A DNA stretch of 64,000 nt from Chalciporus piperatus (Eukaryota > Basidiomycota > Agaricomycetes > Boletales > Boletaceae). The stretch covers positions 51,008 through 115,007 of the forward strand of contig JBBPTG010000085.1 of the NCBI GenBank assembly GCA_038093975.1. Reading direction: 5' to 3'. Shown one piece after another: positions 9,952-59,327 of this stretch. The translations under genes were made by a program, and so were the position numbers. Position 1 is the stretch's first letter. Each line of letters starts with the position of its first letter. The notes beneath the pieces were generated by a model. That model was not told the origin of the DNA and ran no database searches. It saw only the letters and a program-made list of their open reading frames with translations.

Positions 9952-12900
9952 TTTTTTTTTTTTTTTTTTGGATCCATTAGTGTCTAATTGGGGTGAGAGT
10001 AACCCTATGTAAGACATTACTATCTAGAAGCGCAGGGGCACCAGTGCCCCTCCGTATCCCTAACCACGCGAATGCACTCGAGAGCAGATCATAGATCTCC
10101 CCCGAGTCCCGCCGTTCCCGCCGGCGGTTTTAGACGCCATGGTTGTTCAATCAACGGTGCTCCTCCATCGTGTTCGGCGTGTGATGTGAGTTGACTTGCG
10201 AGGAGTTTGTAGTAAAGCATGTACCCGTCCGCCGAAGCGAAAGTGCACGAGGAGGAAGGAGGGATAGGTATCTAGTAAGATAGGTTTTCGGAGTGTTGAG
10301 ACGACGAGGGGCGAGGAGCCGAGTGAGTGGGGGGGAGCGAGATTGAGTGGGGTGGGTTTTCGTCTTCACAACATCCTTGTGTCAGTCTCGTGTTACCGAA
10401 TAGTCCCTTGAGCGCCGAGCGCCCGTTCCTGAACGTCGGCGGGTTATTAATTTGTAATATGGGTAGGGTAGGGGTTAGGTGTAGGGTAGGGGGACGAGGT
10501 GGGATATGTCGGTTTGAGGGGAGATTATAGGGATGTGTAGAATTAGGAGTGGGGTTCATCTTAAAGAAGGAGTTAGCAGTTTTATTGACGGTCGGGAGAG
10601 AGGTTACCGAGGGCCGCTTTGAAGCGGCCCGTTTTGTCGATGTAGTCTAGCAGGTGTGGTACGCCGTTTTTGTCGGAGAGGAGAAATGCGAGATTGGTGG
10701 ATTTTCGTTTCACCCTTGTGCGAAGGATATGCCTTGGTCTCGCGTATTGAGGGCATTTGAACAAGAGATGCGAGACATCCTCAATTTCGTCTACGCAGTA
10801 CGAACATTTGTCCGTGTCCGACTTTGTGATGCGTTTCAGGAATTTATTGAGTGGGCAGTGTCCTGTTCGAAGCCAGAGTAAGGCCGAGGTATGTCGCTTG
10901 CGCATGAGGGTCGAGAGTGAAACGAAGGAACCTGAGAGTAGTTTTGGGTCAATTTTGTCAATGCGCTCGTAACGAGGGGACCTAGCCCATTTCCTCTTCC
11001 ATCTGTCGTGTGTTGTTTTGCGCTGCCATTGCAGGCACGCCGAGACGCTCAAGGGGAGCGGGGCTTTACGGAGGAAAATGGGGAGATGGCTCTTCGGGCT
11101 TGAGCGCTCCAGGCCCTTCGAGGCTTCTTTGGCTTCTTCGTCTGCTTTCTCGTTGCCCTCGACCCCACTATGGCTTGATATCCACTTCACCATGACATTG
11201 CGTCTCGTTAGTCCGTTGTCCTTCGCGACGCTTCGCATCGCTCTATTGAACCTGTCTATTAGATAGTGACCCGGTTTTGTCGAGAAGGGGTTAGCGCCCG
11301 ACTTGATGGCAGCCTGGTTGTCCACGTAGATCGATACTGGGCTGACCAGATCCGGTTCGTTGAAGAGCAGGTGCGCTGCCAGGATCAGTCCAACGGCCTC
11401 CGCTTCGTATACGGTGTGGACCTTGTCGCTCCCTAGGTGGTACCTTAGCGTTCGCGTTGATCCGTCCGGTCGTTGTAGGACTGCTGCTGCTCCTACGCCT
11501 CCTTCCAGACCCGAGCCATCGCAGTAGACTTTGGTGCCCGAACTGTGGTCGTCGTGATGTCTGATTGAGTCTTCCCTGGATTGGGCTATGAGGGTCGTGT
11601 AGGCGGTGGTCTCATTGGGCGGGCGACGAGCGGGTTGAAGGGTTTCGAGAGATGCGGGATTGATGGCGTAGGCGTGGGTGAGGTGGTGTAGGGCTGACTT
11701 GTGGCGTTTGACGAAGCGTTTGGCTGCTCGTGATATTAGACTATGAACGGGATGGGATGGGGGGTGGGAGGAGAGTCGGATGGCTGCTCGATGACATAGA
11801 TTTTGAATTCGCATTTCGATGGGTAGTAGTTTAGTGTGTGCTTCCAGTACATCCGTGGCTGTAGAACGGAAGGCGCCAGTAATACTGATCATGGCGAGGC
11901 GTTGAACCTTACCGAGTTTTTTCGCTGCTCCTGCTGATCCCCGCGTGGTCTCATCACCTGTGCCCGTGTAAAGCGGGGTGAACCATATGTCCGCTGCGTA
12001 TAACATTTTCGGGAGGGCCACCGACGTGTATAGTTGGCGCATTAGGGTGAGGGGGACGCCTTTCGAGGGTAAAGATAGTCTTCGTAACTGCATGACATAC
12101 GCCGTTCCTTTTCCGACAGCGTGGATGACTTGTGCGTGCCAGCGAAGTGCCTCGTCGACTATTACCCCCAGGAAGCGATGAGATTCGGTTGGCGTGATGG
12201 TTGAGCCCCGTATGTTGATGGGGACGCGGTCTTTTTTGTTCTGTGGGGTAAAGTCGATTAGCGCGAACTTGGAGGTTTCAAAACGGGAGTTGTGGTCGCG
12301 TGACCAGTCGAAACCACCTCCCTTCCTCTCGAGCATGTCATGCAGAATCCTATGTGCTTCCTGAGTGGAGTCGGCGATCGCCATGAAGGCGGTGTCGTCG
12401 ACGAAGGCGAGGGTTCTTTCTTTATTGCCTTGAGCAATGTCTACGAGGTCAGCGTTGTAGATTATGTACAATACCATCGAGAGGGGGTCGCCTTGCCCGA
12501 TCCCGTTAGTGATCGCGATCCATTCTGAGGTATGGCCGTCGAAGATGAGCTGAGTGCGTCGGCCCGTTAGTAGCCTCTGGGTAAACGATATTATTCGCTC
12601 TGGGATGCGGCGACGGCGCATGTTGTGTAGCAAACGTGCAGTGACGGCGTTCGGGAAGGCGCCCTCGATATCGAGGAATAGCACTGAGACCACCTTTTTT
12701 GTTCGCCAGGCGTTTTTGACGACCGCTTCGAGAAGGTGAAGCGAGTCGGTCGTGGACCTTCCCGGCCTCCCTCCGAAGTGCGTGGAAGGGAGTAAGTGAT
12801 TCTTCTCTAGTAAGTAGGAAAGCTGGTCTGCCACTACTGCCGTTAGCAGTTTAGCTGTGGTGTTCAGCAGCGCTATGGGTCTATAGGCTTTGGCTATTGT

Positions 12901-13161
12901 GTAGTCCGGGCGTCCAGGCTTTCGCAGGACTACTGTGGTGAAATCCCTCCAAGGGGAGTAGTAGGTTTTAAGGAGAAATGAGGCGGAGAAGATGCGAAGA
13001 AGATGCGGGATTAGTAGCTTCGAACATTGCTTGAAAACGACGTTAGGGATGCCGTCAGGGCCAGGCGCCTTGTAAGGGCTCAGTTTAGCTATGCTCCTTG
13101 AGAGCTGCTCTCGAGTGATTGAACCCACATCATCTACTGGGATGGGGTATTCGAAGTCGTC
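9952..13161 (-). mobile_element. 5'-truncated non-LTR retrotransposon (LINE)
   Basis: The element lies on the minus strand. Its 3' end is an A18 tail (T run at 9952-9969 on plus), preceded by about 610 nt of 3' UTR and an uninterrupted RT/RNase H reading frame. An 11-bp duplication flanks it at 9941-9951 and 13162-13172. The upstream ORF1 and the endonuclease domain are missing and the duplication abuts coding sequence directly, the usual outcome of incomplete target-primed reverse transcription. The 3' UTR contains a short GC palindrome near 10112-10125. The long uninterrupted frame and perfect duplication suggest a recent insertion. Confidence 0.9.
10582..13161 (-). CDS. LINE reverse transcriptase-RNase H polyprotein (5' partial)
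   Basis: About 860 codons are open from the truncation point. RT motifs in order are KAPGPDGIPNVVF, AYRPIALLNTTAKL, FGGRPGRSTTDS, FLDIEGAFPN, NGIGQGDPLS, and the catalytic FVDD (AFVDDTAF), where many RTs have YADD. RNase H follows with YCDGSG, the Glu of EAEAVGL, VDNQAA and SSHSGVEGNEKAD, so the acidic catalytic set looks complete. A C-terminal Cys/His cluster (CSYCVDEIEDVSHLLFKCP) matches the zinc-knuckle-like end of such elements. The open frame continues upstream to 13323, but codons beyond 13161 are host DNA fused by chance. No endonuclease is encoded, so it cannot be autonomous. Confidence 0.9.
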   Translation of the reverse strand, partial: DDFEYPIPVDDVGSITREQLSRSIAKLSPYKAPGPDGIPNVVFKQCSKLLIPHLLRIFSASFLLKTYYSPWRDFTTVVLRKPGRPDYTIAKAYRPIALLNTTAKLLTAVVADQLSYLLEKNHLLPSTHFGGRPGRSTTDSLHLLEAVVKNAWRTKKVVSVLFLDIEGAFPNAVTARLLHNMRRRRIPERIISFTQRLLTGRRTQLIFDGHTSEWIAITNGIGQGDPLSMVLYIIYNADLVDIAQGNKERTLAFVDDTAFMAIADSTQEAHRILHDMLERKGGGFDWSRDHNSRFETSKFALIDFTPQNKKDRVPINIRGSTITPTESHRFLGVIVDEALRWHAQVIHAVGKGTAYVMQLRRLSLPSKGVPLTLMRQLYTSVALPKMLYAADIWFTPLYTGTGDETTRGSAGAAKKLGKVQRLAMISITGAFRSTATDVLEAHTKLLPIEMRIQNLCHRAAIRLSSHPPSHPVHSLISRAAKRFVKRHKSALHHLTHAYAINPASLETLQPARRPPNETTAYTTLIAQSREDSIRHHDDHSSGTKVYCDGSGLEGGVGAAAVLQRPDGSTRTLRYHLGSDKVHTVYEAEAVGLILAAHLLFNEPDLVSPVSIYVDNQAAIKSGANPFSTKPGHYLIDRFNRAMRSVAKDNGLTRRNVMVKWISSHSGVEGNEKADEEAKEASKGLERSSPKSHLPIFLRKAPLPLSVSACLQWQRKTTHDRWKRKWARSPRYERIDKIDPKLLSGSFVSLSTLMRKRHTSALLWLRTGHCPLNKFLKRITKSDTDKCSYCVDEIEDVSHLLFKCPQYARPRHILRTRVKRKSTNLAFLLSDKNGVPHLLDYIDKTGRFKAALGNLSPDRQ

Positions 13162-13172
13162 ATGATAAAGTA
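13162..13172. repeat. LINE target-site duplication, 5' side
   Basis: ATGATAAAGTA, identical to 9941-9951; it marks the exact truncation point of the LINE. Confidence 0.85.
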
Positions 13173-14241
13173 TGAAAGTAAGCTCGAGCTGTGACAGTCT
13201 ACGGTCTGACTCAACACACACTGGATGGCGGGACTCGGGGAGAGGCTGCCAGTGGCAAGGATGTGTGATTCGTGTCTTCAAATGGACACTGTTGAGGTGT
13301 ACGGTATCTGGTCGATAGGTCAAGGCACAGATAGACAGGGATCATCAAATACCGTACGCGATTGAAGAAGCTCACACGGAAGCTTCAAATGCATTGTACT
13401 TTACGGATTTGAATGAGGGGTTTTATTAGGAATCAGGTTCGACTTCTGAATGACCAACAACAATCCGAAGTTTCGTCGTCGTCCGGTAGATCCGGAAGTA
13501 TGTAGAAGAACGTTCGTTCCAAACGAGGCGAGGAAGAAAGTGACCCACGGGTGACGGTGGTTCGTTCAACTGAAGCGGCGCCGGCAATGTCAGGTGCCGG
13601 ATGGAAGATACGTTTGCAAGTGCAAGAGCTTGATTTCGGAAACGGAACCATATGCGGGTGTGTCGGGAGCGATTGGCTGATTAGAGGACAAGAAGCGGGA
13701 TCAGTTGGACGTGACATGGCCAGGTATGGCTAAATGAAGTTGGAAGGGGTGTAATGAAAGATTGGACGAGTTTTCATGGAACGGTCTGGGTGGGTTTACA
13801 ATACCTGACTTGGACCCCGTGAATCCATGACTTGGGGTTGGGTAGCAAGGAGCACAGGATGGCTGATGCGCGGAGAGAAAGTTGTGAGGGGGAAGAGTTC
13901 AGATTAATTTTCGAGGTTCGGATAAATCAAAAGTAACGGATATAGAACAATGATTGCTATATCCATACCAGGCAGAACGAGGTCACGCTCAGAGGACTGG
14001 GGGACACACAGTCTCTGGTCTCTATCTACCATGCACCGGTCAGAGTCATGCAAGCCATGGCAATGGATTGAAACTGCCCACAGTAAACGTCGTAAGCTGT
14101 GTCGTCTTGTGGGGCGAGACCGAGTTGTTGTGACCGTGTGTGATTATGTGACTGTCACGAGTCAGGGCTCAGTCACGGCGTTGAGAACAAAGACGCTGGT
14201 CAGGCAAAGGCTCTGTCTCTTCACGTTCCCTCTCACTGCTC
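13173..14241. other. Intergenic region / upstream of G-alpha gene
   Basis: No confident gene. Open frames on both strands around 13433-13733 lack known domains. The 14100-14240 part is likely promoter or leader of the G-alpha gene. Confidence 0.3.
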
Positions 14242-20993: not shown

Positions 20994-22600
20994 CTACTCG
21001 TAAATGTACAGACCGTTGAACGTGAAGTATGCACCAGCAAATGCTAACGGATTGTTGTTCACAAAATCTAGACAGAAGCTCAGTCTCTCCTCCCAAAAAT
21101 AGGTCAACTTCGTGGCGCTTACCAACACACGTCGAGGGACATCCAGAGGTTCCATAGACAGCACCAGCCCAATCACCACCTGTAGGGTAGTCAAGTTTAG
21201 ACCCACCACCGCATGTTCGTTTTAAAGTGCACATACAGAAGGTTAGGTTAATAACGATGTTATGAGGACCAAGATGAGTGGCGAAGTCGCAATCCGTGCT
21301 TGGGAAGTATGCCGCTGGCTCGCCCTGCCAAGTGGCTGGTGAGTGACATACTTCGTGAAGTGTGCAGCAAGATTACCCATGTGCTGGTATCAATCCCATG
21401 CCCGGGGAACATTACTTCACGTGGGACATCTTCGCTGTCACGCTCCCAGAAATAGATCGAAATGTAAGTCGGGGTCCGCTCGATCGCATACCTAGTTGGA
21501 TTAGTATCCGCGCTGGGTTGCTCAAGAAGATGCCTACCAGCCGCCACCTATGCCGTTGAAGTGAGGACCGTAGCTCTTAATGTCGTTGATACCAACACCG
21601 CATCCGCTATTGCTAGTCTCGGCAACGTCGCAGTTGTTACCCCTGCTGGTTCTGCATACCGTGATTTCCATGAACTTGTGGTGTTTCTATTTAAATGCAA
21701 CGAACTTACCCGGTCATCGTTCGATTGGCCGGCATCGTGCAGTCTTTTACGGGTAAGAGTCAAAGCAGCATTTGATGCAAGCGAAGTACTTACTTGCATT
21801 CGTATGTAGAGTTGATTGGTTTGGTGACTGGTCATTGACACCCTCGACGATGTCTATCTCGCCCTGTGGTGTCTCGCTTAAACACCGACGATCAATATAC
21901 AACTCATACGAACCTCATTTGGCCAGTTAGCACCGACCTCCTGTGACAATGTCAGTATACGAAACGGAACTCGTCGAAGAACACTCATACCCTGTGTACA
22001 TTCGACCACGCCAAAAATTCCGTGAGTCAACATCTCGATGAAGAATGATAAACAAACCCTAGAACGAGATGAGCACGCCTAACAGACAAACGATATCAGA
22101 AACGCACAAACAGCAGGCCAGGTCCCGCAACCCTGCGGCATATGCGCAATATCAAATCTAACCTAGTTTCAGCACAACTTTCATCAACCATCGACTCACT
22201 CACATCGCAACGTGAGTCGTATATTGCTCATAAGACTGTATCCTGAACGAGTTTCTTCCCGGGCCGGTCGGATCAAGGAATGACCAAAAGTTCGCTCGCA
22301 ACGTCAGAGTGTTTCCAAAGACTGTATACAACCCATCCTCCCATGCCGTCGACTGATTGACATAGTTCCTAGGGGAAACGAACAGCATGATTCAGCCAAA
22401 CATCCCAATCGAAGACGAAACCAATTTCGGTTCACGTACACTCGTCCGTGTGTAGGATCAGGAATAGCCTGCCACTCGAAAGCATCGAGGAACTTCTCCC
22501 CATTGAGACGAGAGGTCATGGTGTACGACGCCCCCTGTGCCAAAACGGCCGTAGCACACCCGGCAAGGGTCAAGAGTCGCGATGGGTATGAATATACCAT
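20994..22600 (-). CDS. Secreted GH16 family endo-beta-1,3(4)-glucanase (minus copy)
   Basis: Starts MVYSYPSRLLTLAGCATAVLA (signal peptide; ATG at 22600, with a longer start at 22636 possible), then SRLNGEKFLDAFEW...PTHGRV. Later exons encode HMPQGCGTWPAV, then W-EVGANWPNE-GEIDIVEGVND, NCTMPANRTMTG, RGNNCDVAETSNSGCGV, FNGIGGGW, GDWAGAVYGTSGCPSTC and a final GAYFTFNGLYIYE. The GEIDIVE segment holds the ExDxxE catalytic motif of GH16. It should cleave beta-1,3/1,4-glucans outside the cell, for wall remodelling or nutrition. The TGG codon between PAV and EVG is split by introns 22059-22107, 21992-22057 and 21941-21990, leaving one-nucleotide exons at 22058 and 21991. The paralogue at 49414 has the same arrangement. 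I did not fix every other exon border. Confidence 0.85.
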
Positions 22601-23540: not shown

Positions 23541-23700
23541 GTGCCCTGTGCCGCCGGGGTCAGCCGGCATGAGGAAACGGTGAAAACGAGGATGGAGATG
23601 GGCGCTTGACGATGATATCTCTGTCAGCCTCTTGTTAGACTCGTGGAACTCGTCCTGGAACTCTTTTTCCCCACCTATACCCCATCCACCTTGTCTCGCC

Positions 23701-26559
23701 ATGTCCAATGAAGTGTACGAATCTTCCCAACGTGACGATCGACTTCTTCGCACACTTTCTGGGCACACAGACTGGATCTGCACGATGGCGTACCTCCCTG
23801 GTGGCCGACGACTAGTGACCGGTTCTAGAGATACGACGATTCGGATATGGGCAGTAGGTCTCGATGCCAGGCAAGAAGGGATGTCAATGGTTCACGCAGC
23901 AGGTGTCTTTCGTCTTGCTGTGACGAACGATGGGAGAAAGATAATTAGCGGGGATGTTGAGGGGAACTTTACAGTGTGGGATGTGGCAACGCAGGAACTC
24001 GTCGAACATTGGAAACACACAGAGATATACTCCCGAGTCGCAATCTCGGCAGATGATCGACTCCTCGCGTATGGCAGGGGAACCATCATCATTCGAGAGT
24101 TGAGTAGTCGACGAATCAAACACGAGATCGAGATTGGTGGTGGAAGTGCACTCTGTTTTTCCCGTGATGGATCCAAACTCGCAATTGGAGTAAAGGACAT
24201 CTTCATCTACGACGTCGAGAGCGGGGGACGAATCCTTACGTTCAAGGGACACCAGGACTCGGTCAACTCTTTGCAGTGGTCGCGTGATGGTGCCAAACTC
24301 TACTCTGCCTCTTCCGATAGAACAGTTCGCTATTGGAACGCAGAAACGGGGGAACAAATCGGACAACCATGGGGAGGTCACTCCAACTACGTTTGGTCAC
24401 TTTCACCTTCACAAGATGGCACAAAATTAGCGAGCGGATCATGGGATAACACGGTGCGTCTATGGGATCCATCTGGTCATCCCATCGGACAGCCTCTGCA
24501 ACACGAGGATTCAGTGTTCGCGGTCTGCATCTCTCCCTCGAACGACGTCGTGGCAGCTGCAGGAGGATGCGGAAAGATCTCAATTTGGCGCGTTCCATGG
24601 CGGAGCGACAAGATCCAGGTATGTCATCGATCGGCTGTCCTTCAGGATCCACTAACCCGTATCAACAGTCACACGAACCTGCTACTATCACCGCCTACCC
24701 AACCACGCGTACACTAAAACGGAGAAACTCACCCAATCCTGAGAACGCTCCCGAGACGTGCGCCGATTCACTTCAGGTAACTGCTCGCCTTCCACCTCAC
24801 ATTGAAGTCGTTTTCATCAGTCTTTAGGTATCTTACCCTACGACTCCCTCCGCATATCATCCGCAGGTTCGTACATTCTGTCTCGGACCACTCCGTTCTT
24901 ACCGACACGATGAACGTTTGCGTGTTCATATCAGCCGCGTGATACGCAATTGCAGGTCGTCGGTGACCCCACTTCCGCGAAGTCAATGTGGATCACAGAT
25001 CGGCTGCATACCTCACAGATAATCAACGATGATCATCAAGACCGACCTCGTGAACCGACCGCAAACGAAGGCATCGAGTCTCGGACGACATTGGGTGAAG
25101 CATTATCGCATACAGGACGGGTGAGTCTGCCGGTCTCTGCCATGGCAGCGATCCGCTGATCACGACCACCCTTCAAAGCTATCCGATAGTGTTCATGACT
25201 TCCCATTCACTGTCCTATCTACGGCACCTCAAGTAGAAGCTGGGTCGACCCTGCCGCATGTTCCGATATCCGGGAAAGATTCAAGCAACCATTCCCTCAC
25301 GACGCCACTCGATCTCACTCAGTTTATCGTCAAACTTGAGGACCAATATTCGGAAGGAGGCGCCTTTGGTGATGTTTATAGATGCCATTACAATGGCCCT
25401 ACAGGCGCCACCGAGGTTGGAACCATGATCGCACTCTTGACTGCTCTTTACTTACTACCTTCCTTCAGGTAGCCGTCAAATCGTTCAGATTCAGGTTCAC
25501 GTTGGACAAAGGGGACGATGCTTCTCACTCTGTCAAGGTAATTGAATATGCTCGTGTTGTCGAGGCGCGGATGTATGCTAACTGTTAACGTGGTACTTAG
25601 ATGGTTCGTCGAGAACTCGGGATATGGAGGAGATTGGATCATCCCAACATCGTACCATTCCTGGGTACTGCGACCGGTTTCGGAATGCAAGGTTCACTGG
25701 CACTGGTCTCCGCGTGGATGCCAAACGGAAGTCTTCATGGATTCCTAGAAACGCATGGGGAGCAACTCCACGTTTCCCACCAACTGCAAGTTGTACGTCG
25801 TCCTCGCATCCTCTCAGAGTCTCAGTCACTTACTCATCCGTTCGTGATAGCTGTGGGACATTGCAAACGGGCTTGACTACCGTACGTCGGCGGCGGCGCT
25901 GATCCCGGGACGTTGTATTGACAACGCTATACAGTGCACTCTTTCCCCGTATCCCCTATCGTCCATGGGGATCTCAATACCGTAGGTCACAACAGACCAT
26001 TGAAATTTAGATTTGCTAACTATGTCTAGCATAATGTGCTCATGGACAGAAATTTCACCCCGCGCTTGGTTGATTTTGGCTATTCCACGGTAGTTGGAAG
26101 TATACCCGAAGGGTGGACATATCTCCAGAGGTCCACCGCACAACCGGGTGCTTTCCGGTGGGCTGCGCCGGAACTGATCCTTGCTGAAGAAGCACCCGAA
26201 AGGACCCCCAAGAGTGACATCTACTCTTTCGGGTGCCTCGGGTTGCAGGTTTGTTGAGGTGATACGTGTTCGATCGATGTTCATGCTAACCTCTGCCATA
26301 GGTGTTGTCGGGCAAAAAACCATGGTCGGAAGTTTGGGGAGACGCTGCGATCACTGCACGCTTACTCAAGGGAGAGAAACCTAAGCGACCGAAATCGAGG
26401 GCAATGGATGATCGCCACTGGGAATTCATTGAATGTTGCTGGTCATCGCCCGAGGAGCGGCCTACAGCAGCGGTGCTGGCTTCTGGGCTTCGGGATTTCT
26501 TGAGCTCCTCCCCGCAATCCCCGTCACTTCATGATATGTTTTCGTCATCCTCGTCATAG
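23701..26559 (+). CDS. WD40-TKL-type protein kinase fusion, copy 1
   Basis: Eleven exons close in frame (759 residues): 23701-24618, 24669-24776, 24828-24866, 24956-25120, 25179-25415, 25469-25537, 25601-25789, 25851-25881, 25935-25981, 26030-26248, 26302-26559. Residues 1-306 form about seven WD40 blades (TLSGHTDWI, RIWAVG, TVWDVAT, FIYDVES, RYWNAET, RLWDPSG, SIWRVPW). A roughly 180-residue linker includes a 13-residue exon (24828-24866). The kinase domain has a Gly loop (EGGAFGDVY), VAVK lysine, helix-C Glu (RREL), HGDLNTHNVL in place of HRDxxxxN, DFG (LVDFGYST), APE (WAAPEL) and DIYSFGC. Catalytic residues are present, so it is probably active. The fused architecture suggests a sensor or scaffold domain controlling a kinase; substrate unknown. 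A paralogue follows at 27995. RNA data should confirm that WD40 and kinase lie on one transcript. Confidence 0.82.
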
Positions 26560-27830: not shown

Positions 27831-27994
27831 CGAGGAAATGGTGAAAACAAAGATGGAGACGGGCGCTTGACGGATATTTCTGTCATGCCTCGTGTTATTT
27901 AAACTCGTGGATGTGAGGCGGGGCACATCGCCTGTTTATAGTGATCGTCTCGGAACTCTTTTTCCCATCCGTACCCCATCCACCTTGTCTCGCC

Positions 27995-30493
27995 ATGTCC
28001 AATGAAGTGTACGAATCTTCCCAACGTGACGATCGGCTTCTTCGCACACTTTCTGGGCACACAGGGTTTATCTGTAGAATGGCGTACCTCCCTGGCGACC
28101 AACGACTGGTGACCGGTTCTGAAGATAAGACTATTCGCATATGGACGGTAGCAGATGGCAGGCAAGAAGGGAAGTCAATGGTCCACACAGCGGGTGTCAA
28201 GGATCTTGCTGTGACGAGCGATGGGAGAAGGATAATTAGCGCGGATGATGAGGGGAACATCACAGTGTGGGATGTGGCAACGCAGGAACGCCTCGAAGGC
28301 TGGCAACACACGGAGACGAACTCCAATTTCAAAATTGCAATGTCCGCAGATGATCGGCTCCTCGCGTACTATGGCAGGGGAACCATCCTCATTCGGGAGA
28401 TGAACGGTCGACGAATCAAACAAAAGATCAAGATTGGTGGTGGAGGTGCACTCTGTTTTTCTCGTGATGGATCCAAACTCGCGATTGGCAGAACGGACAT
28501 CTTGATCTACGACGTCGAGAGCGGGCGCCGAATCCTTACGCTCGAGGGACACAAGAATTGGGTCAAGTCTCTACAGTGGTCGCATGATGGTAACGGGCTC
28601 TACTCTGCTTCTTTCGATAAAACGATTCGCTGTTGGAATGCAGAAACGGGGAAACAGATTGGACAGCCATGGAAGGATCACTCTGACTGGATTCGCTCCA
28701 TTTCACTTTCACGAGATGGCACAAAACTTGCAAGTGGGTCCGACGATCGGACCATCCGTTTCTGGGATACATCCGGTCGTCCCATCGGACACCCTCTGCG
28801 ACACTACCATTCAGTGTTCGCAGTCTGCATCTCTCCATCGAACGACGTTGTGGCAGCTGCAGGAGGATCTGGAAAGATCTCGATTTGGCGCGTTCCATGC
28901 CGGGGCGACCAGGTATTCCATCCACTAGCTGTCCTTTAACATCCACTGACCCGTATCCACAGTCGAGCGAACCTACTCCTCCACCAATACCACCCGTATC
29001 ACCCGCCGATTCACTTCAGGTAACCGCTCGCCTACCACCTCGCAAAGTCGTATTCACCAGTCATTAGGGATCTTACCCTGCGACTCCCTCCGTATATCAT
29101 CCGCAGGTTCGTACATCTTATCTCAGTCCACTCGTTTCCTACGAACATAACCTTCGCGTGTTCATCTCTGCCACGTGATACGCAATTGCAGGTCATCGAG
29201 TCTCGGTCCCAGACAGATTCAAGCAACCGTTCCCTCTCGGCGCCACTCGATCTCACCCAGTGTATCGTCAAACTTGAGGACCAATACTCGGAAGGAGGCG
29301 CCTTTGGTGATGTATATAAATGCCACTACAACAGCCCTGCAGGCGCCACTGAGGTTGGAACAGTGTTCGGACTCTCGACCGCTCTTTATTTACGTACCTT
29401 CCTTCAGGTAGCCATCAAATCGTTCAGATTCAGGTTCACGTTGGACAAAGGGGACGATGCTTCTCACTCCGTCAAGGTGATTGAATATGCTCGTGTTGTC
29501 GAGGCGCGGACGTATGCTAACTGTTAACGTGGTACTTAGATGGTTCGTCGAGAACTCGGGATATGGAGGAGATTGGATCATCCCAACATCGTACCATTCC
29601 TGGGTACTGCGACCGGTTTCGGAATGCAAGGTTCACTTGCACTCGTCTCTGCGTGGATGCCAAACGGAAGTCTTCATGGATTCCTAGAAAAGCATGGGGA
29701 GCAGCTCCATGTCGCCCACCAACTCCAGTTTGTATGTCGTCCTTGCGTCCTCTCATCCACTTATTCATCCGTTCGTGATAGCTGTGGGACATCGCAAATG
29801 GGCTTGACTACTGTACGCCATTCCCACTGATCGCGGGACGTTATATTGACAACGCTATACAGTGCACTCTTTCCGCGTGTCCCCTATCGTCCACGGGGAT
29901 CTCAATGGTGTATGTTACAATGCATTACAGATATACAGATCTACTAATCACTCCGTAGAACAACGTACTTGTCGATGAATGTTTCATCGCACGCTTAGCT
30001 GATTTTGGCTATTCTACGGTGGTGGGAAACATATCTGAAGCATTGACATACCTTCAGAGATCCACCGCACGACCAGGTGCAATACGATGGTGTGCACCGG
30101 AACTGATTCTTACGGAAGAAGAAGAAAAACCACCTGAAAGGACCCCCAAGAGTGACATCTACTCTTTTGGATGCCTCGCTATGCAGGTTCATCTGAAACA
30201 TATGTAAATCCATTTGAATGCTAATCTCTTCATAGGTGCTTTCGGGCGAGCAACCATGGTCGGAAGTTTGGGAAGAGGCTGCGATCCCTGTTCGAATGTT
30301 CAAGGGGCAGAAACCCAAGCGTCCGAATTCGCGGGCGATGGATGATCGATATTGGGAATTCATTGAATGTTGCTGGTCATCGCCTGAGGATAGGCCTACA
30401 ACGGCAGTGCTGGCTTCTGTTCTTCAGGATTTCTTGAGCTCCTGCCCGCAATCCCCATCTCTTCGTGATATGTTTTCGTCATCCTCGTCATAG
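27995..30493 (+). CDS. WD40-TKL-type protein kinase fusion, copy 2
   Basis: Ten exons (27995-28912, 28963-29019, 29068-29106, 29192-29353, 29408-29476, 29540-29731, 29782-29812, 29863-29909, 29959-30186, 30236-30493) give 666 residues. The WD40 part is again exactly 306 codons. The linker is shorter than in copy 1 by about 90 residues, because the second exon is shorter and the middle linker exon pair is merged or lost, but the 13-residue exon (29068-29106) is kept in frame. The kinase keeps EGGAFGDVY, VAIK, RREL, HGDLNGNNVL, ADFGYST, APEL and DIYSFGC. One border (29731/29732, GTATGT donor) differs from copy 1 and adds one residue. Same inferred role and caveats as copy 1. Confidence 0.82.
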
Positions 30494-41611: not shown

Positions 41612-43764
41612 TCAATCCGGAAGTATCAATGTAGTGATGTTCTCGGCTTTCTCGAGGGAATTCACGCCGCCCAGTTGCGACTCGGATAGCGAATTGTATA
41701 TCGGGCACAGGTCGTCCCATGCGTCTACGGACGGCGTCAGTGCAGTCCACGAAGCGAAGTGAGATGCTTACCTGGGAGTGTGCCAATATGATTCCGCACC
41801 CCCGACGGACTCTCGGCCATCACTATGGCGAACCCACTAAAAAAAACTCGTCAACAAGTATTAACATCACAAGGCGGGAGAACTGACGCTTCTAAATGCC
41901 AGTCAATATGACTGCAAAACTGAACATTAGGATAGGCCACTAGTACGAGTTTTATAAGATCGTACCAATGCAGGAACCACGGGCCAGGATTATCGGTCAC
42001 CCATCGAACAACCATCTGTTGACCTTGTATACCAGCTGACGTCACATCTCGACGAACGGGGTTCTTGTAGTTGAAAGTTCCATTGGCACCAGCGCTTTGG
42101 ATGACATCAAAAGCATGCTGCAAGACGAGTCAGACGAGTACATGGTCAGTTGAATACGCACGGACACCATGTAAATGAATCGGGTGCTGCAACGGATATG
42201 AGCCACAGTACACCGCTACTGAGAACAGGAAACATACGGGACCGCCAAAGCCACCATTTGTCATCGTAAGTTCAACAACTTTGTTGGACTCCAACACAAT
42301 GACGCTTCCGTTTGGCATGAGATCAGTTGCCTCTTGTGCACCGCTAAGGATCTGCAGAAGCACAGGCACAGGCGGAGGCCTGTATCGAACGCCATTCATG
42401 TAGTATACTCCGCCGATGTTGTTCGCGAGAATGTGAATATTAATATCTGCTTTCCCGTACTCGGGAACGCCAGGTGCTCCGGGGTTAATGAGAGCGTGAA
42501 GGTTTTGTTCCAGCAAGGGCATCACGCTGGCAGTATGGTTGGTCGTCGGATCTTCGTTTGGCGCGCCGCTATATCGTAAAATGGCAGAATGGAGTCCTCC
42601 CACGAAGCTCGAGTTAGGAGTATTCGGAAGGGCTCTTATCCAGTAGTTGCCGATGGGCTTTGTTGCGTTCATTACAACGGAGTAACGTTGCCCGGGAAAA
42701 ACCTGGAGTAAATCGACCTGGAGGGGCTCCGTCAAAACTCCGTCGGCCTCGATTACAGTGAGGTTGTGCCCGTCGATCGAAAACAAGAAGTATGGAGCGC
42801 AGGACATCCCGACCAAACGGAAGCGATAGCGTTTCCCATATTCGACGTTTACAACAGCAAGTTCTGACTTGGGCCCGCCTTGGTAACGCCCAAGCCCGTT
42901 GATCAGTGTTGAATTAGCGGCGGCACCGATGATATGGTTCATTACTGGCGCGACAATGTGGTACCTTCAAGGGTCCTACTCAGAAATATATTTCGCTGAG
43001 CAACGAGAGCTCACCAGTCAGCAAGGGTTATCACAGTCGTTTCTGAAAGGCTATGTCAGCACGCGATACAGGGATTACATGCCACTTGCCGTCATCCACA
43101 TCGTACAAGTAATGATAAGGATCTTCCGGATCATAGATGACCAAAGGTCCCCTCAGACCGTCGCATGTTTGTGATGAGTAGTGCGAGTGGTACCAATACG
43201 TTCCCGCTTGGTTTCCCACACTGAACCGGTGAAGGAATGTATTGTTCTGGGCAATCGGACATTGTGTGACGAACGATGTGCCATCAACATAGTTGGTGCC
43301 GTTTTGATAGAGTCCGTGCCAATGCTGAAGGAAGGGTGAATTACCTTCCAGAGCTGAAATACAACGTACATACCACACTCGTACTTAGGAACATGTCCGG
43401 ATCCTGTAGTTTATTGATCACATTGAGTGCGAAACGTTCTCCCTACACGAAGGTTAAGTTGGGCGCATTAAGAAAGATATGGTCGGCCACACCTTGTAAG
43501 CCCTGATGAGTGGTCCTGGAAAGGTACCTCCCGCGAGGGTAGTCCTTGGTGATGTTGTTGGAAAGAGTGTCTCCGTGAATGAAAGGAAACTCACGAGCGC
43601 AAGAATCCATCCGGCGCAATCATCTGGTTGGAAATAGTCAAGTTAGTGACCGGTCCGATCAAATGCGGGAGAGGTAGGAGTGGGGCTGTTCGTGAACGCG
43701 AAACGATGGATGCAGCATAGCTGGTTGGAAGAAGGAAAAAGGCGAATAGAAACCAGAGAGACAT
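41612..43764 (-). CDS. Laccase (multicopper oxidase), secreted
   Basis: Starts at the inner Met [17 protein letters not shown] (signal peptide, ATG 43764) and ends TTLILPD with TGA at 41612-41614. The four laccase copper signatures are seen: [15 protein letters not shown] (L1), [18 protein letters not shown] (L2), HPIHLHG (L3, at 42180) and [13 protein letters not shown] (L4). L4 is formed by splicing TG to T at the acceptor before 41911, and the unspliced reading [11 protein letters not shown] is misleading. Laccases oxidise phenols at a type-1 copper and pass electrons to the trinuclear centre, where O2 becomes water; in Agaricomycetes they act outside the cell on lignin-like phenols or pigments. 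Many introns of about 50 nt. The axial residue region after L4 is FAIVMAES. Confidence 0.9.
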
Positions 43765-49413: not shown

Positions 49414-51054
49414 ATGATCGCTAAACTGTTAACTGGACTTCTCTTCGTTCTCGCGGTTGCACAACACGTTTTGTGCGCCACTTACTCACGTTCAAGCAGC
49501 CTTTCAGGCCAAAACTTCATCGACGCATTCACCTGGGAGACGAATGCTGATCCTAACTATGGGCGTGTGTATGTGACAAGCCCTCGCTTGCTCTGCATCG
49601 GTAGTCATTGACATATGGACAGGAACTACGTCGATTTGGCAACATCACAATCGAAAGGTCTCGTGTCAGTTTCTGGGAATCAAGTAACGCTACGTCCCGA
49701 TAGTACAACTGTACTCAACTCGACAGGACCTGGACGGGATTCGTTCAACATTTTGTCGACTAACCAGTATACCACTCACGTCGCCGTGTAATTATGTCTC
49801 CCCTTAGTTCGTCCTCTGGGGTTGATATCCATCCTGCACAGTTTTGACATCGTACATATGCCTGAAGGCTGTGGAACTTGGCCTGCAGTGTGTATGTCAA
49901 GCGCTTATTTGTCGTAGCTGATCATATATACTGACACAATCCTCTACACAGGGTTGGTTGAATCACATTCTATCGTTGATCACTTACTCAGCTGGAGTAA
50001 TATTTTATTTTATTAGGGTAAGCGTATACTAGGCAACCCATTTGATCTAATGCCTCATCTATTTTCAGGAGCTTGGCGCGAACTGGCCTGAAGGGGTATG
50101 GCTACTTGAAATTCGGACGGTTTCGTGCTAACGTTGGGATACATTAGGGAGAAATCGATATCGTGGAGGGCATCAACTCCCAAGCCTCCAACCTTGTGAC
50201 TTTACATGCCAGTGCAAGTACGTCCTATCTTTTGTTCGTATACAGATTGGTTCCTCATTCACTTGTCGTAGATTGTACGATGCCATCGCCTCGTACTATG
50301 TCAGGGTAAACATATTCATCTTAATGTGCTGTTCTCGACGATCTCATCATAGTGTGATAGGACAAGCCAAGGAACAAACTGCAACGTTTATGAAACCAAC
50401 AATTCAGGATGCGGTGTCTCGGTCGATACCGCAAACAGCTACGGTTCCTCATTCAATTCGGCCGGCGGAGGATGGTGAGTGTTCCTTCCTACTGGTACTC
50501 CGACACTGCATGGTGCTTACCATACTGAACCAGGTATGCTATTGAACGAACGACATCGTTTCTCAGAGTCTTCTTTTGGAGTCGACAGAGCTGTTCTGTT
50601 CCGAGCGATGTCAAGACCGCTGGATCGACGGCTAACACGGACAACTGGGTAAGGGCCTCTTAACTCGCTATGTCGTAAGAATTTCTAAGGTGTTCTGATG
50701 ATTTCAATAGGGAACGCCTGTTGCATACTTCCCGAGCAGCATGACTTGCGATTTCTCGACTCATCTCAGCCCCTTCAATATCGTTGTCGACCTAGATTTC
50801 TGTACGTAGTTCCGTTCCACGCCTTGCCTTACGCAGTTGGAGGTGACCACTGTTATGCAGGTGGTGCATGGGCTGGTAATTCCCAGCTCTACAGCGCAGC
50901 TGGTTGTCCGTCGACTTGCTCTGGTAAGTTTGGCGTGCTTTTTCAATTACGACGAGGGGCTGAGGATCCGAATTTTGAAGATTATGTGGATAACAATCCA
51001 TCGGGGTTCAAGGATGCCTACTTTACTTTCAACGCGTTGAATATCTATGAGTGA
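49414..51054 (+). CDS. Secreted GH16 family endo-beta-1,3(4)-glucanase (plus copy)
   Basis: Thirteen exons give exactly 327 residues: 49414-49568, 49623-49787, 49842-49891, 49952, 50017, 50069-50095, 50148-50217, 50272-50305, 50361-50474, 50534-50648, 50711-50801, 50861-50923, 50957-51054. Signal peptide MIAKLLTGLLFVLAVAQHVLC. The catalytic ExDxxE is in GEIDIVEG (exon from 50148). Other family landmarks are MPEGCGTWPAV, NWPEG, NNSGCGVSVDT, FNSAGGGW, CGAWAGN, GCPSTC and AYFTFNALNIYE. The Trp after PAV is encoded by T (end of 49891), G (49952) and G (50017), each bounded by AG and GT. Predicted role is extracellular cleavage of beta-1,3/1,4-glucan. It is a diverged paralogue of the gene at 20994. 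Confidence 0.85.
49952..49952 (+). other. Putative one-nucleotide exon 1 of GH16 (plus copy)
   Basis: G between ACACAG and GTTGGT. Its introns are 60 nt (49892-49951) and 64 nt (49953-50016). Confidence 0.6.
50017..50017 (+). other. Putative one-nucleotide exon 2 of GH16 (plus copy)
   Basis: G between TATTAG and GTAAGC. The following intron is 50018-50068 (51 nt). Confidence 0.6.
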
Positions 51055-55972: not shown

Positions 55973-58900
55973 ATGGCTTTCTCATGCAATGGCTGCAGTC
56001 ATACCTTTGGTGATCAACGTGCTTTTGTTCAACACCTCCGAAAAACACGGCAGCCAGGATGCATTCAGGTTCGCCAGGAGATGGAGGAGATGATGCGACG
56101 GCGTCCAGTTCGCGCTGATCTCCCGTCCAAACGTAAAGCCCGCCAAGAACAGGACTTGAGTGTTTCTGATTCGGAGTGGGTCGATGTTTCAGTTTTTACC
56201 TGTGAAAGATCCTCACGAGGAAAATAGGTCAGAATCCGACGAGTCAAACATATTCAACGGTGACTATTTTGGCACAGACTATCACGAAGAGGATTTCCCA
56301 TTTCCCCCTGAGATTGACGGGAATGGCTCGGAGGATGATGAAGGAGTGAACGAACCCATACTCGATCTATCCGGTGTCGGCCAGGGTGTTCCAATTGATG
56401 AACTTGACGAGGAACCCGAACACGACCAACACGATCCAGTGCCAGCAAAGGAATCGGATACAGAGATGGAGGTCGACAACGAACAAGATTACCCACCTGA
56501 AGATCAAAATCAGCCTCCTGACGACAGTCGCTCAGAGAACGATCAACCCAACCCACCTCAGAATGTCTACATCGAGCATTTCGGCGGTCGCGCTGGTGAA
56601 ATTATCCATGATCCAGAAAGCGACTCCAGAAGCCAGGCGGGCTATAATGATTACGGCACCCGACTTGCGAGCCATACCAACAACGAAGCAAATCCGTGGG
56701 CTCCATTCAAGTCGCAAATTGACTGGGAAGTTGCCCGCTGGGCAAAACTGAGGGGACCAGGCTCGACAGCCTTTTCCGAGCTGCTCGCAATCCCCGGGGT
56801 AAGTAAGATGCTCAGTCACTGCGTGAACGAGGCTAATGACTCCACGTGAATATACAGACACACGAGAAGCTAGGGCTCTCATACAAGACCACTGCCGAGC
56901 TAAATAGAATTGTTGACAGTCTTCCCGGTGCTCGTCCAGCCTTTGTCCATCACGAAGTTGAAGTAGCTGGCGAGCAATTCGATTTGTTCGCGCGGGATAT
57001 TGTCGAATGTATTCAAGCTTTATTTGGTGACCCAGAGCATGCTCAGTACCTCTGTTTCGTGCCGGAACGCCATTATGCTGATGCGGAGAAGAAAGAAAGG
57101 ATATATCACGACATGTACACAGGGAAGTGGTGGTGGAGTACCCAGGTAAGTGACTGGTTTCGCGAACCCGCCGGCACGATGGAGTTGTGTGGTAACCATT
57201 GAGCAGGTAGAGCTTGAGAAGCAAACACCTGGTGCAACAATCATACCCGTCATTCTGTCATCAGACAAGACCCAGCTAACGCTATTTCGCAACAAAACTG
57301 CATATCCAGTTTATCTCACAATTGGAAACCTCCCGAAGTCCATTCGACGCAAGCCGTCACGTCAAGGCCAGATTCTCCTTGCTTACCTCCCAACGACTCG
57401 CCTCACACACATATCTAACAAGTCCGCCCGTCGTCGAACTCTAGCAAATCTGTTCCATGCGTGTCTTGAACATGTGGTCGCACCCCTCCATGAAGCCGGT
57501 GTCAATGGCGTGGACATCACGAGCGGTGACGGTGTGCGTCGCCGAGGGCACCCCATTCTTGCTTCCTACATCGGCGATTATCCTGAACAGTGCATGGTCA
57601 CCGGCGCGTACACTGGAGACTGTCCAATTTGCGACTGTCCCCACGATGAGCTCGGAGATCATCCTTATGACGCACCTCTTCGGGATCTAGATGTGATCCT
57701 TGACGCACTAGAACAATTGGGTTTACCATCGTATTCCGCGGCATGCCGCAATGTTAGAATCAAACCCTTACAGCGCCCATTTTGGACGAGCCTTCCCTAT
57801 GTCAATATTTTCCAGTCTATTACCCCAGATATTCTGCATCAGCTATACCAAGGAGTTGTCAAGCATCTCGTTTCATGGCTCACAACAATTTGTGGTGCTA
57901 TAGAAATAGATGCACGGGTCCGTCGTTTTCCCCCAAACCATAGCATCAGAATTTTCCAGAAAGGAATTACGAATCTTACTCGAGTAAGCGGCACAGAACA
58001 CAAACAAATCGCAGCGCTTCTGCTCGGATTGATCAGCAATATCATCCATCTCCCTCATGGCATCTCACCAATCCCGCTAATAACGGCCACACGTGCGATT
58101 CTTGACTTTCTGTATCTCGCCCAATACACGATTCACAACAGCACCACTCTGCAAAAGCTCCAAAGTGCCCTAGATGATTTTCACGACAACGCCTTCGTTT
58201 TCATCGACCTCGGTGTTCGCAATCACTTCAATATCCCAAAACTTCATTCTCTACAACACTACGTACGGTCTATCAAACTATTTGGCACAGCCGACAACTT
58301 CAATACCGAAGCAACTGAACGTCTCCACATTGACTTCGCAAAAGACGCGTACAAAGCGACGAACCACAAGAACGAGTTTCTACAAATGACGACGTGGCTG
58401 GAGAGGAAGGAAAAGATTATTCGGCATTCCAACTTCATGACCTGGCAGTCACAGCATGCAACTCGTACTCCCTCCCAGGTTTCCGCTCGACGAGAACTCC
58501 ATTGGCGCCCTCCGAGCATGGCCAGACCTCTTCAGCTGAGAATGACCATCCACCCATCTCGAAACTCGGTCTCCCTTGACGACATCGTCTCTCCACTTCA
58601 TTACAATGCGCGATCCTTTCTCCCAGCGCTCACCCGCTTCGTCGCACTGTTCAACAATCCTACAATCTCCCAGCGGCGACAACTCGATGAACACGCACGG
58701 TCGGTGCACCTACCCTTCACATCTCTCCCGGTATTCCATCGAATCAAATTCTGGAATGAAGAGCTGCACGGAAACGATACCATTGATTCGATTCATGTCC
58801 AACCACCTGCTTACAACAATGCAGGTGTGGTCATCAGTCCCGCGCGCTTTGATACGGCGCTGATCAATGTTCGGAATGTCACATCCGAGCCACAATCTAA

Positions 58901-59327
58901 ACGGCTACAGGGTAGGTCTTTTCTGTTGTCGCGGATTCGCTGTGACTCAAACCAATTGGGAAAACATCTAGACTTTCGTGTAGGTCGTGTGAAGCTCGTT
59001 TTTGCCATACCACCGAGGACAACGGACCTTCTCTTTCGAAGAGAGAGACAGCCACCCAAGCACCTTGCCTATGTGGAGTGGTTTACCAGATTCACCCCAT
59101 CACCAGAACCGGCAACGAAGTTGTACCGGGTCCACAAAGCACTTCGAAACGGCGAATGTCTAGCATCCGTCGTGCCCATCGAACTCATCAGCCGCAGCGT
59201 GCACCTATTGCCCAAATGGGGAGGGAATGTCCCGCTAGACTGGACGAGCGAGAATGTCATCGATACCTGTCCCTCTTTTCTTGTTAATGCATTCAAGGAT
59301 ATGTCTACGTACTTCAATGTATACTAG
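55973..59327 (+). CDS. Plavaka transposase
   Basis: Four exons (55973-56159, 56233-56798, 56858-57145, 57207-59327) close in frame as 1053 residues. The N-terminus has a C2H2-like finger (CNGCSHTFGDQRAFVQH, ending QPGC) as in other Plavaka proteins, followed by an acidic disordered region. The core includes TIIPVILSSDKTQLT, YPVYLTIGNLPKSIRRKPS, LLAYLPTTRL, IGDYPEQCMVTG and CPICDCPHDELG, then PDILHQLYQGVVKHL and FNTEATERLHIDFAKDAYKA, whose acidic residues fit an RNase H-fold catalytic site. An apparent frame break near 56160 is resolved by a 73-nt intron, so the gene is intact. It would cut and paste the element. Confidence 0.88.

What the first reader, a model, noticed from the sequence alone, without database searches (positions are those of the whole stretch)
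49842..50095. A tryptophan codon split over three introns, with two successive one-nucleotide exons (GH16, plus copy)
Seen directly: exon 49842-49891 ends in T of the expected TGG. It is followed by AG|G|GT at 49952 and AG|G|GT at 50017, then by the exon 50069 GAG CTT GGC. Intron lengths would be 60, 64 and 51 nt, normal for this genome. With both single G exons, the Trp of the conserved PAVW segment is restored and the 13-exon model closes in frame over 327 codons. Splicing straight from the T to 50069 creates TGA, a stop. One-nucleotide exons are extremely rare, and two in a row in one codon would be remarkable.
Basis: partly seen in the sequence, partly recalled or inferred. Interest (0 to 1): 0.88.

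Follow-up and report, generated by a model that had tools for sequence, protein, structure and literature searches.

The report
Two one-letter exons in one codon
In a bolete-like mushroom genome, one tryptophan codon of a sugar-cutting enzyme gene has two introns inside it and a third directly behind it, so that two of its three letters are each an entire exon, and related Boletales genes, whose published protein predictions mostly break at or beside this codon, seem to share the arrangement.

Summary
T(49891) | 60-nt intron | G(49952) | 64-nt intron | G(50017) | 51-nt intron | GAG(50069) rebuilds the Trp of PAVW in a GH16 laminarinase-like gene (two introns inside the codon, the third directly behind it). 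Three further GH16 copies in the genome, one on this window's minus strand, have the same T|G|G|GA layout although their intron interiors have diverged to near shuffle-level similarity. A spliced aligner with trained splice-site and length scores and no minimum exon size chooses two 1-nt exons in 4 of 4 copies, 17-24 bits above models with exons of 2 nt or more. With flat scores it prefers a 5-nt exon adding one residue, the serious rival. In a Boletales clade, 51 of 56 genome-annotated proteins are aberrant at or beside this codon, against 2 of 103 outside; 7 of 7 short-contig (transcript-like) clade proteins have the Trp without an extra residue, one (1134-nt contig) matching at 302/315 residues a Suillus model that is broken there. 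Single 1-nt exons are known (plant APC11 and VPS55, Fusarium CYP621A); I found no report of two in a row. Missing: RNA from this genome, DNA of the other Boletales.

The parts
49414..51054 (+). GH16 laminarinase-like gene, plus copy: 13 exons, 319 aa with N-terminal signal-like segment
   Evidence: exon model closes in frame; best PDB match 2cl2, E 6.3e-107, over residues 22-319
49842..49891 (+). exon 3, ends ...CCT GCA GTG T (first letter of the Trp codon)
49892..49951 (+). intron A, 60 nt, phase 1 (T|GG): GTATGT...CTGAC...ACACAG
   Evidence: donor 7.4 bits (39.7th percentile of 73 training introns), acceptor 6.8 bits (65.8th)
49952..49952 (+). first one-nucleotide exon, G
   Evidence: AG|G|GT; chosen by unconstrained spliced alignment
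49953..50016 (+). intron B, 64 nt, phase 2 (TG|G): GTTGGT...TTATTAG; weak donor
   Evidence: donor 3.1 bits (1.4th percentile), acceptor 6.1 bits (52.1th percentile)
50017..50017 (+). second one-nucleotide exon, G
   Evidence: AG|G|GT
50018..50068 (+). intron C, 51 nt, phase 0 (TGG|): GTAAGC...CTAAT...TTTTCAG
   Evidence: donor 9.5 bits (89th percentile), acceptor 9.5 bits (100th percentile)
50069..50095 (+). next exon, GAG CTT GGC GCG AAC TGG CCT GAA GGG (ELGANWPEG)
20994..22600 (-). GH16 minus copy with the same split Trp codon: T 22108, G 22058, G 21991, GAG from 21940; introns 49, 66 and 50 nt
   Evidence: coordinates converted from the reverse strand
22058..22058 (-). minus copy, first one-nucleotide exon, G (TTCTAG|G|GTTTGT)
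21991..21991 (-). minus copy, second one-nucleotide exon, G (TACACAG|G|GTATGA)

Best explanation
The Trp codon TGG of the PAVW segment in a Boletales GH16_1-like endo-beta-1,3(4)-glucanase gene is cut by two short introns (phases 1 and 2) and followed at once by a third (phase 0), leaving two successive one-nucleotide exons (T|G|G|GAG). The introns are of ordinary size (49-66 nt in the four copies; GT-AG, with one GC donor in L033) and are recognised by intron definition. The two boundaries AG|G|GT are shared between neighbours (A with B, B with C), so neighbouring introns cannot be assembled at the same time; A and C share nothing. I infer that A and C are removed first, in either order, which turns each single G into the end or start of a normal exon, and that B, the longest in 4 of 4 copies and the weakest at the donor in 3 of 4, goes last. 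The result is the invariant Trp and the frame that carries the catalytic GEIDIVEG downstream. Shown: anatomy, conservation in four own paralogues, clade-wide annotation failure, transcript-like proteins with the Trp. Inferred: use in this genome's mRNA, the same DNA layout in the other species, and the splicing order.
For: (1) Exact sequence and frame. (2) The same T|G|G|GA layout in 4 own-genome genes: window plus, window minus, L032, L033; introns 60/64/51, 49/66/50, 51/66/58, 49/63/51; exactly two AG|G|G[TC] sites per insert at least 40 nt from its ends. (3) Proteins 57-86% identical, intron interiors 51-67% identical against means of 51-63% for shuffled partners; a few pairs exceed shuffles by 2-3 SD. 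The boundaries and both Gs persisted while interiors mostly randomised. (4) Spliced DP with PWM and length terms, minimum exon 1 nt: two 1-nt exons in 4/4, margins 21.9, 17.0, 24.4, 18.9 bits over exons of 2 nt or more; ahead in 20 of 20 leave-gene-out and parameter variants, 4.4-24.2 bits; no other exon under 10 nt in 12 own genes. (5) Clade: clean at the codon 5/56 genome-annotated and 7/7 short-contig; outside 101/103 and 20/20. (6) P0122 (longest contig 1134 nt, too short for 12 introns) against P0020 (Suillus spraguei model): 302/315 identical, PAIWEVGANW against PAI..LGANW; P0010 against P0037 (Pisolithus sp. B1 model): 303/310, PAVWEVGGNWPNE against PAVCTLA.....Q. (7) 11 clade models read PA[VI]C, as reading past T|GT would give, 0 of 123 outside; in 7 models with a non-E/T residue after W that residue is L, S, Y, F, F, F, F (some from sister Boletus genes), all with T-starting codons, as AG|G|GT requires.
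Against: With flat splice scores (no PWM or length term) the aligner prefers a 5-nt exon plus one inserted residue in 4/4 copies. The plus copy's intron-B donor GTTGGT is at the 1.4th percentile of 73 training donors, and L033's third donor is GC, scoring below all 73. No RNA from this genome was available. DNA of the other Boletales was not seen, so the same layout there is inferred from protein models. That the seven short-contig proteins are transcripts is inferred; contig length alone excludes the introns for three (P0014, P0027, P0122; 1074-1162 nt), not for the others (1558-2082 nt). Two clade genome models (P0025, P0026) are clean for reasons I could not check. Of the 51 aberrant models some differ more widely than at the codon (P0007, P0129, P0048, P0162; P0098 and P0144 lack the whole short exon), and three (P0008, P0035, P0126: PA[VI]CEVG) have Cys for Trp with no length change, which I cannot derive from the layout. 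The place of Serpula and Coniophora (clean) is unstable between trees, so the time of origin is open.
Confidence: 0.92

Rival explanations
1. One 5-nt exon instead of two 1-nt exons: GGTTN at the first site (49952-49956 in the plus copy) with one 111-121 nt intron behind it. The Trp is kept and one residue is inserted, e.g. V-W-L-E-L-G. In L032 and L033 a 5-nt exon at the second site scores better under trained scores.
For: In frame in all four copies; one intron fewer; the first-site form is chosen in 4/4 when splice sites are scored flat. Tylopilus felleus P0001 is annotated PAVWLELG and B. edulis P0006 PAVWSELG.
Against: The first-site form's second donor (GTTGAA, GTTTAT, GTTTGA, GTTTAA) scores below all 73 training donors in 4/4, and its long intron is 111-121 nt against 46-75 nt for the 73 others. 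The best 5-nt form loses by 17-24 bits with PWM and length. 7/7 transcript-like clade proteins and own paralogue L035 (one contiguous exon) have no extra residue. It leaves the other conserved AG|G|G[TC] unexplained.
Confidence: 0.04
2. Stwintron-like nested splicing: intron B is internal and goes first, then the flanking introns; final mRNA as in the best explanation.
For: Consecutive splicing through overlapping sites is known for stwintrons in fungi (search listing; passage in PMC5639578).
Against: No donor or acceptor of the three introns is interrupted: each has its own contiguous pair, so the defining feature is absent. As a statement about order alone it is untested.
Confidence: 0.02
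3. The plus copy uses one 26-nt exon 49992-50017 (in frame, no stop) between a 100-nt and the 51-nt intron and lacks the Trp.
For: Open and in frame by direct reading of the sequence.
Against: Loses a residue present as PA[VILAY]W in 122 of 123 homologues outside the clade; inserts nine residues; chosen in none of the aligner runs.
Confidence: 0.005
4. Pseudogene or assembly error.
For: Odd structure; most database models of relatives are broken here.
Against: The rest of the gene is open over 13 exons; the same layout in four separate loci; transcript-like relatives are intact.
Confidence: 0.01

Closest known systems
Single 1-nt exon of APC11 (Arabidopsis) and 1-nt microexons of APC11 and VPS55 in land plants (PMC4674806: abstract and discussion read; PMC8831610: passages read)
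   Same: nuclear, spliceosomal 1-nt exon; conserved over long times; missed by genome annotation
   Different: one 1-nt exon per gene; here two in a row, in a fungus, in a multicopy enzyme family
1-nt exon of CYP621A in Fusarium (PMC12940212: abstract, introduction, results, discussion read)
   Same: fungal; AGGGT core; restores a conserved motif; the codon's three letters also lie in three exons; clade-wide; RNA reads support it
   Different: one 1-nt exon (middle letter of a Gly codon) in Ascomycota; here the last two letters of a Trp codon are separate exons, with a third intron directly behind, in Basidiomycota; no reads of our own
Adjacent 5-nt and 12-nt microexons (rice, PMC8831610; Zygnema peptidase M1 gene, PMC11096116; passages read)
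   Same: two neighbouring microexons, missed by annotation
   Different: sizes 5 and 12 nt, not one nucleotide each
Placozoan mitochondrial cox1 1-bp exon (PMC5436844: abstract read)
   Same: 1-nt exon
   Different: mitochondrial, flanked by group I introns, not spliceosomal
Lam16A laminarinase of Phanerochaete chrysosporium (PDB 2cl2)
   Same: protein family; PAAW at the same place, E 6.3e-107
   Different: gene structure of Lam16A was not seen here

Membership tests
One-nucleotide exon | a single nucleotide bounded by an upstream AG and a downstream donor of introns of normal size | tested here: met
   AG|G|GT twice in three copies; in L033 the second is AG|G|GC
One-nucleotide exon | needed for frame and for the conserved residue | tested here: met
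   only chain from the T donor to the GA acceptor restoring TGG|GA in 4/4 copies; PA[VILAY]W in 122 of 123 homologues outside the clade
One-nucleotide exon | included in mature mRNA | tested here: inconclusive
   no RNA from this genome; 7/7 transcript-like proteins of the clade have the Trp without an extra residue, protein letters only
One-nucleotide exon | evolutionary conservation | tested here: met
   DNA of four own paralogues; protein-level signs across Boletales
Stwintron | donor, acceptor or branch site of an external intron interrupted by an internal intron | tested here: not met
   each intron has its own contiguous GT(GC)..AG
Recursive-splicing ratchet point (0-nt exon, AG|GT) | acceptor directly abuts donor | tested here: not met
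   one G lies between at each site
GH16_1 glucanase | similarity to Lam16A, ExDxxE catalytic motif, WPA...WPX pattern | tested here: met
   GEIDIVEG and GTWPA..NWPE; pattern described for GH16_1 in PMC6827312
GH16_1 glucanase | endo-beta-1,3(4)-glucanase activity | not testable with these tools
   sequence only

The most novel reading that the evidence does not exclude
A pair of successive one-nucleotide exons, made by three introns in and directly behind a single codon, is a standing feature of a GH16 gene clade across most of the order Boletales, kept under selection through gene duplications while the introns themselves randomised. It must be spliced stepwise, probably outer introns first, and it is wrong in nearly all of the clade's genome-derived gene models that I saw. 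It would be the first known run of exons of the minimum size.
Probability: 0.8. Interest if true: 0.87.

Novelty: new variant of a known kind. Interest (0 to 1): 0.84.

Why it matters
It takes exon size to its floor twice in a row, which bears on how the spliceosome handles overlapping splice sites and on whether short-intron fungi need exon definition at all. It gives a natural, multicopy test system for splicing order. It also points to a systematic annotation failure: 51 of 56 genome models in the clade are aberrant at or beside an invariant residue close to the active-site motif, so enzymes made from such models would probably be defective (inference).

Tried and rejected
Tried without result: scans of viral contigs and of genome contigs for Boletales DNA found no relative. 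Pfam-A gave no family for the protein, and PF26113, the label printed by the protein searches, is not in the family library. L041 gave only a partial GH16 model and L042 none. Introns A, B and C of one gene resemble one another no more than shuffled partners, at most about 1 SD above, so no sign of tandem duplication; one search found no second copy of the 376-nt region (49842-50217) at E 0.001 or better, so no sign of an introner.

Rejected: the 5-nt exon, the 26-nt exon, the pseudogene or assembly reading, stwintron membership, and a 0-nt ratchet (see rivals and membership). The first aligner run favoured the 5-nt exon in 4/4; I replaced flat scores by trained ones and report both.

Rows and labels: I took the 67-leaf clade (63 public proteins plus 4 own copies), which also holds clean Serpula and Coniophora; in the first tree these were listed outside, and Serpula fell with the outgroups (support 82). 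'Short-contig' labels were set by hand from the sources and contig lengths. 'Clean' means W directly followed by E or T, so P0173 (LWAVG) counts as not clean. An earlier, looser count also called P0001 and P0006 clean. The searches listed 120 of 615, 120 of 1782 and 120 of 2268 hits; 186 distinct proteins were used. In one search only chains from the fixed T donor to the fixed GA acceptor were enumerated; other donors were open only to the aligner. One search ran on cut-out pieces, in which a 7-nt end fragment appears; it is not counted as an exon. Paper searches listed 20 of 29 and 15 of 119 papers.

Full report
Check of the observation. Exon 49842-49891 ends in T. AG|G|GT occurs at 49952 and again at 50017, and CAG|GAG at 50069. 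Intron lengths are 60, 64 and 51 nt. Two of the introns lie inside the codon (phases 1 and 2); the third lies directly behind it. The protein matches P. chrysosporium laminarinase 2cl2 at E 6.3e-107 over residues 22-319. The Trp aligns with chain residue 103, twelve residues before the Glu that is Ser in the related entry 2wlq.

Setting. The window lies in an unnamed 35.5 Mb, 484-contig genome. The nearest proteins are from Boletaceae and other Boletales (Tylopilus felleus, 76% identity over 91% of the query), so the organism is a bolete-like fungus (inference). A GH16 search of the genome led to twelve further regions. Full models were made for 12 own genes: 4 have T|G|G|GA, 6 an unbroken TGG with no intron at it (L034, L035, L036, L037, L039, L040), L038 has TGG| and L043 TG|G.

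Four copies. Window plus, window minus (about 27 kb away), L032 and L033 all read PAV T|G|G|GA(G/A) with three introns: 60/64/51, 49/66/50, 51/66/58 and 49/63/51 nt. Each insert holds exactly two AG|G|G[TC] sites at least 40 nt from its ends, and of chains from the T donor to the GA acceptor only one restores TGG|GA. Seventy-three other introns of seven GH16 genes are 46-75 nt long (mean 54.6). Protein identity among the four copies is 57-86%, but intron interiors are 51-67% identical against means of 51-63% for shuffled partners; a few pairs exceed the shuffles by 2-3 SD. So the sites stayed while the interiors mostly randomised. Shuffled inserts give a TGG-restoring chain with 45-80 nt introns in 3, 3, 1 and 0 of 5000. 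The copies share descent, so I do not multiply these numbers.

Competing structures. A nucleotide-level spliced aligner was written with a profile from 69 homologues outside my Boletales list and no minimum exon length. With flat splice scores it chose a 5-nt exon GGTTN plus one inserted residue in 4/4 copies, because one intron fewer outweighed one insertion. With donor and acceptor matrices and a length term trained on the 73 introns (the codon's own introns excluded), it chose two 1-nt exons in 4/4, ahead by 21.9, 17.0, 24.4 and 18.9 bits of the best model with exons of at least 2 nt; that runner-up was a 5-nt exon at the first site in the two window copies and at the second site in L032 and L033. 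Leave-gene-out and four further settings kept the order in 20 of 20 runs, margins 4.4-24.2 bits. The same aligner placed no other exon under 10 nt in the 12 own genes. Weak points: the plus copy's intron-B donor GTTGGT lies at the 1.4th percentile, and L033's third donor is GC.

Relatives. Three protein searches gave 186 proteins. On a tree built without the codon's region, a 67-leaf clade (support 1.0) holds the four copies and 63 public proteins. Those with organism names are Boletales (five species looked up, the others from memory). There, Trp followed directly by Glu or Thr is found in 5 of 56 genome-annotated proteins and in 7 of 7 proteins whose longest contig is 1.07-2.08 kb; outside, in 101 of 103 and 20 of 20 (Fisher 3e-33 for genome models in against out, 1.4e-6 for genome against short-contig within the clade). 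I read the seven as transcripts (inference): the four own clade copies each have 12 introns, and for three of the seven (1074-1162 nt) the contig is too short to hold them; for the other four (1558-2082 nt) length alone does not exclude it. P0122 (1134 nt) is 302/315 identical to Suillus spraguei P0020, which lacks two residues at the site; P0010 (2082 nt) is 303/310 identical to the Pisolithus sp. B1 model P0037, which departs in one block there. Two B. edulis models (P0025, P0039; 306/312) differ in the same way. Aberrant models carry the fingerprints expected: PA[VI]C in 11, none of 123 outside; and in seven models with W followed by something other than E or T, the next residue is L, S, Y, F, F, F, F, all with T-starting codons, as AG|G|GT demands. 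Four of these continue FV, i.e. GTTYGTN, the intron-B donor type of three own copies. Not every aberrant model fits so neatly: P0007, P0129, P0048 and P0162 differ more widely, P0098 and P0144 lack the whole short exon, and P0008, P0035 and P0126 have Cys for Trp at unchanged length, which I cannot explain. Seven Boletales proteins of the L034/L035 type (one of them short-contig), whose own-genome members have an unbroken TGG, are clean.

Mechanism and origin. Sites A/B and B/C overlap at AGGGT, so neighbouring introns must go one after the other; A and C do not overlap. Intron B is the longest in 4/4 and has the weakest donor in 3/4. Hence the proposed order, A and C first, then B (inference; Guo and Liu argue for stepwise removal at APC11). 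L043 has one intron at TG|G and L038 one at TGG|, so the codon is a repeated place of introns in this family; independent gains at T^G^G^G are the simplest route, but the order of gains and the ancestral state are not resolved.

Known cases. Searches 'single-nucleotide exon', 'one-nucleotide exon', '1-nt exon', two sets of spelling variants, 'microexon' with basidiomycete or Boletales, and consecutive or adjacent microexons (34 and 45 were listed only in part) gave single 1-nt exons in plant APC11 and VPS55, Fusarium CYP621A and placozoan mitochondria, a mention in fungal mitochondrial genomes (PMC12308204, listing only), and adjacent 5- and 12-nt microexons. In what I saw of them none describes two successive 1-nt exons. 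A codon spread over three exons is not new by itself: CYP621A has one. The library holds open-licence papers only.

Verdict. A real, conserved and apparently unreported extreme of a known kind. What remains is direct RNA from this locus and DNA from the other species.

Noticed in passing
L034 and L035 (own genome; C38, C22): The related Boletales GH16 copies have 10-nt and 12-nt microexons (in L034 the 10-nt exon is A ACC TGG CCT, just before the PALW segment).
   Followed up: partly
L033 reverse strand 1372-1422: The third intron of the split codon has a GC donor (GCGAGT), so one of the six boundaries has drifted from GT in one copy.
   Followed up: partly
L043 reverse strand 1274-1323; L038 reverse strand 1559-1615: Single introns at TG|G and at TGG| of the same Trp codon in two other GH16 paralogues: the codon is an intron hotspot.
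   Followed up: partly
public proteins P0008, P0035, P0126: PA[VI]CEVG: Cys replaces Trp with no change of length. I could not derive this from the T|G|G|GA layout.
   Followed up: no
public proteins P0048, P0162: Paxillus and Phlebopus models with a quite different segment here (ISEIDDTSSTAG, IHDTSSTAG); they may be a diverged paralogue rather than a misprediction.
   Followed up: no
L041 forward 1194-1500: Partial GH16 gene: only about 86 aligned residues, joined through a GC-donor intron; perhaps a truncated copy.
   Followed up: no
window 10582-13323 minus: Open reading frame with reverse transcriptase and RNase H domains (non-LTR retrotransposon-like).
   Followed up: no
window 57150-59327 plus: Plavaka transposase reading frame, E 4e-87.
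   Followed up: no
window 23632-24717 plus and 27941-28939 plus: Two similar WD40-repeat reading frames about 3 kb apart, apparently tandem duplicates.
   Followed up: no
window 42130-42942 minus: Part of a multicopper oxidase (laccase-like) gene.
   Followed up: no
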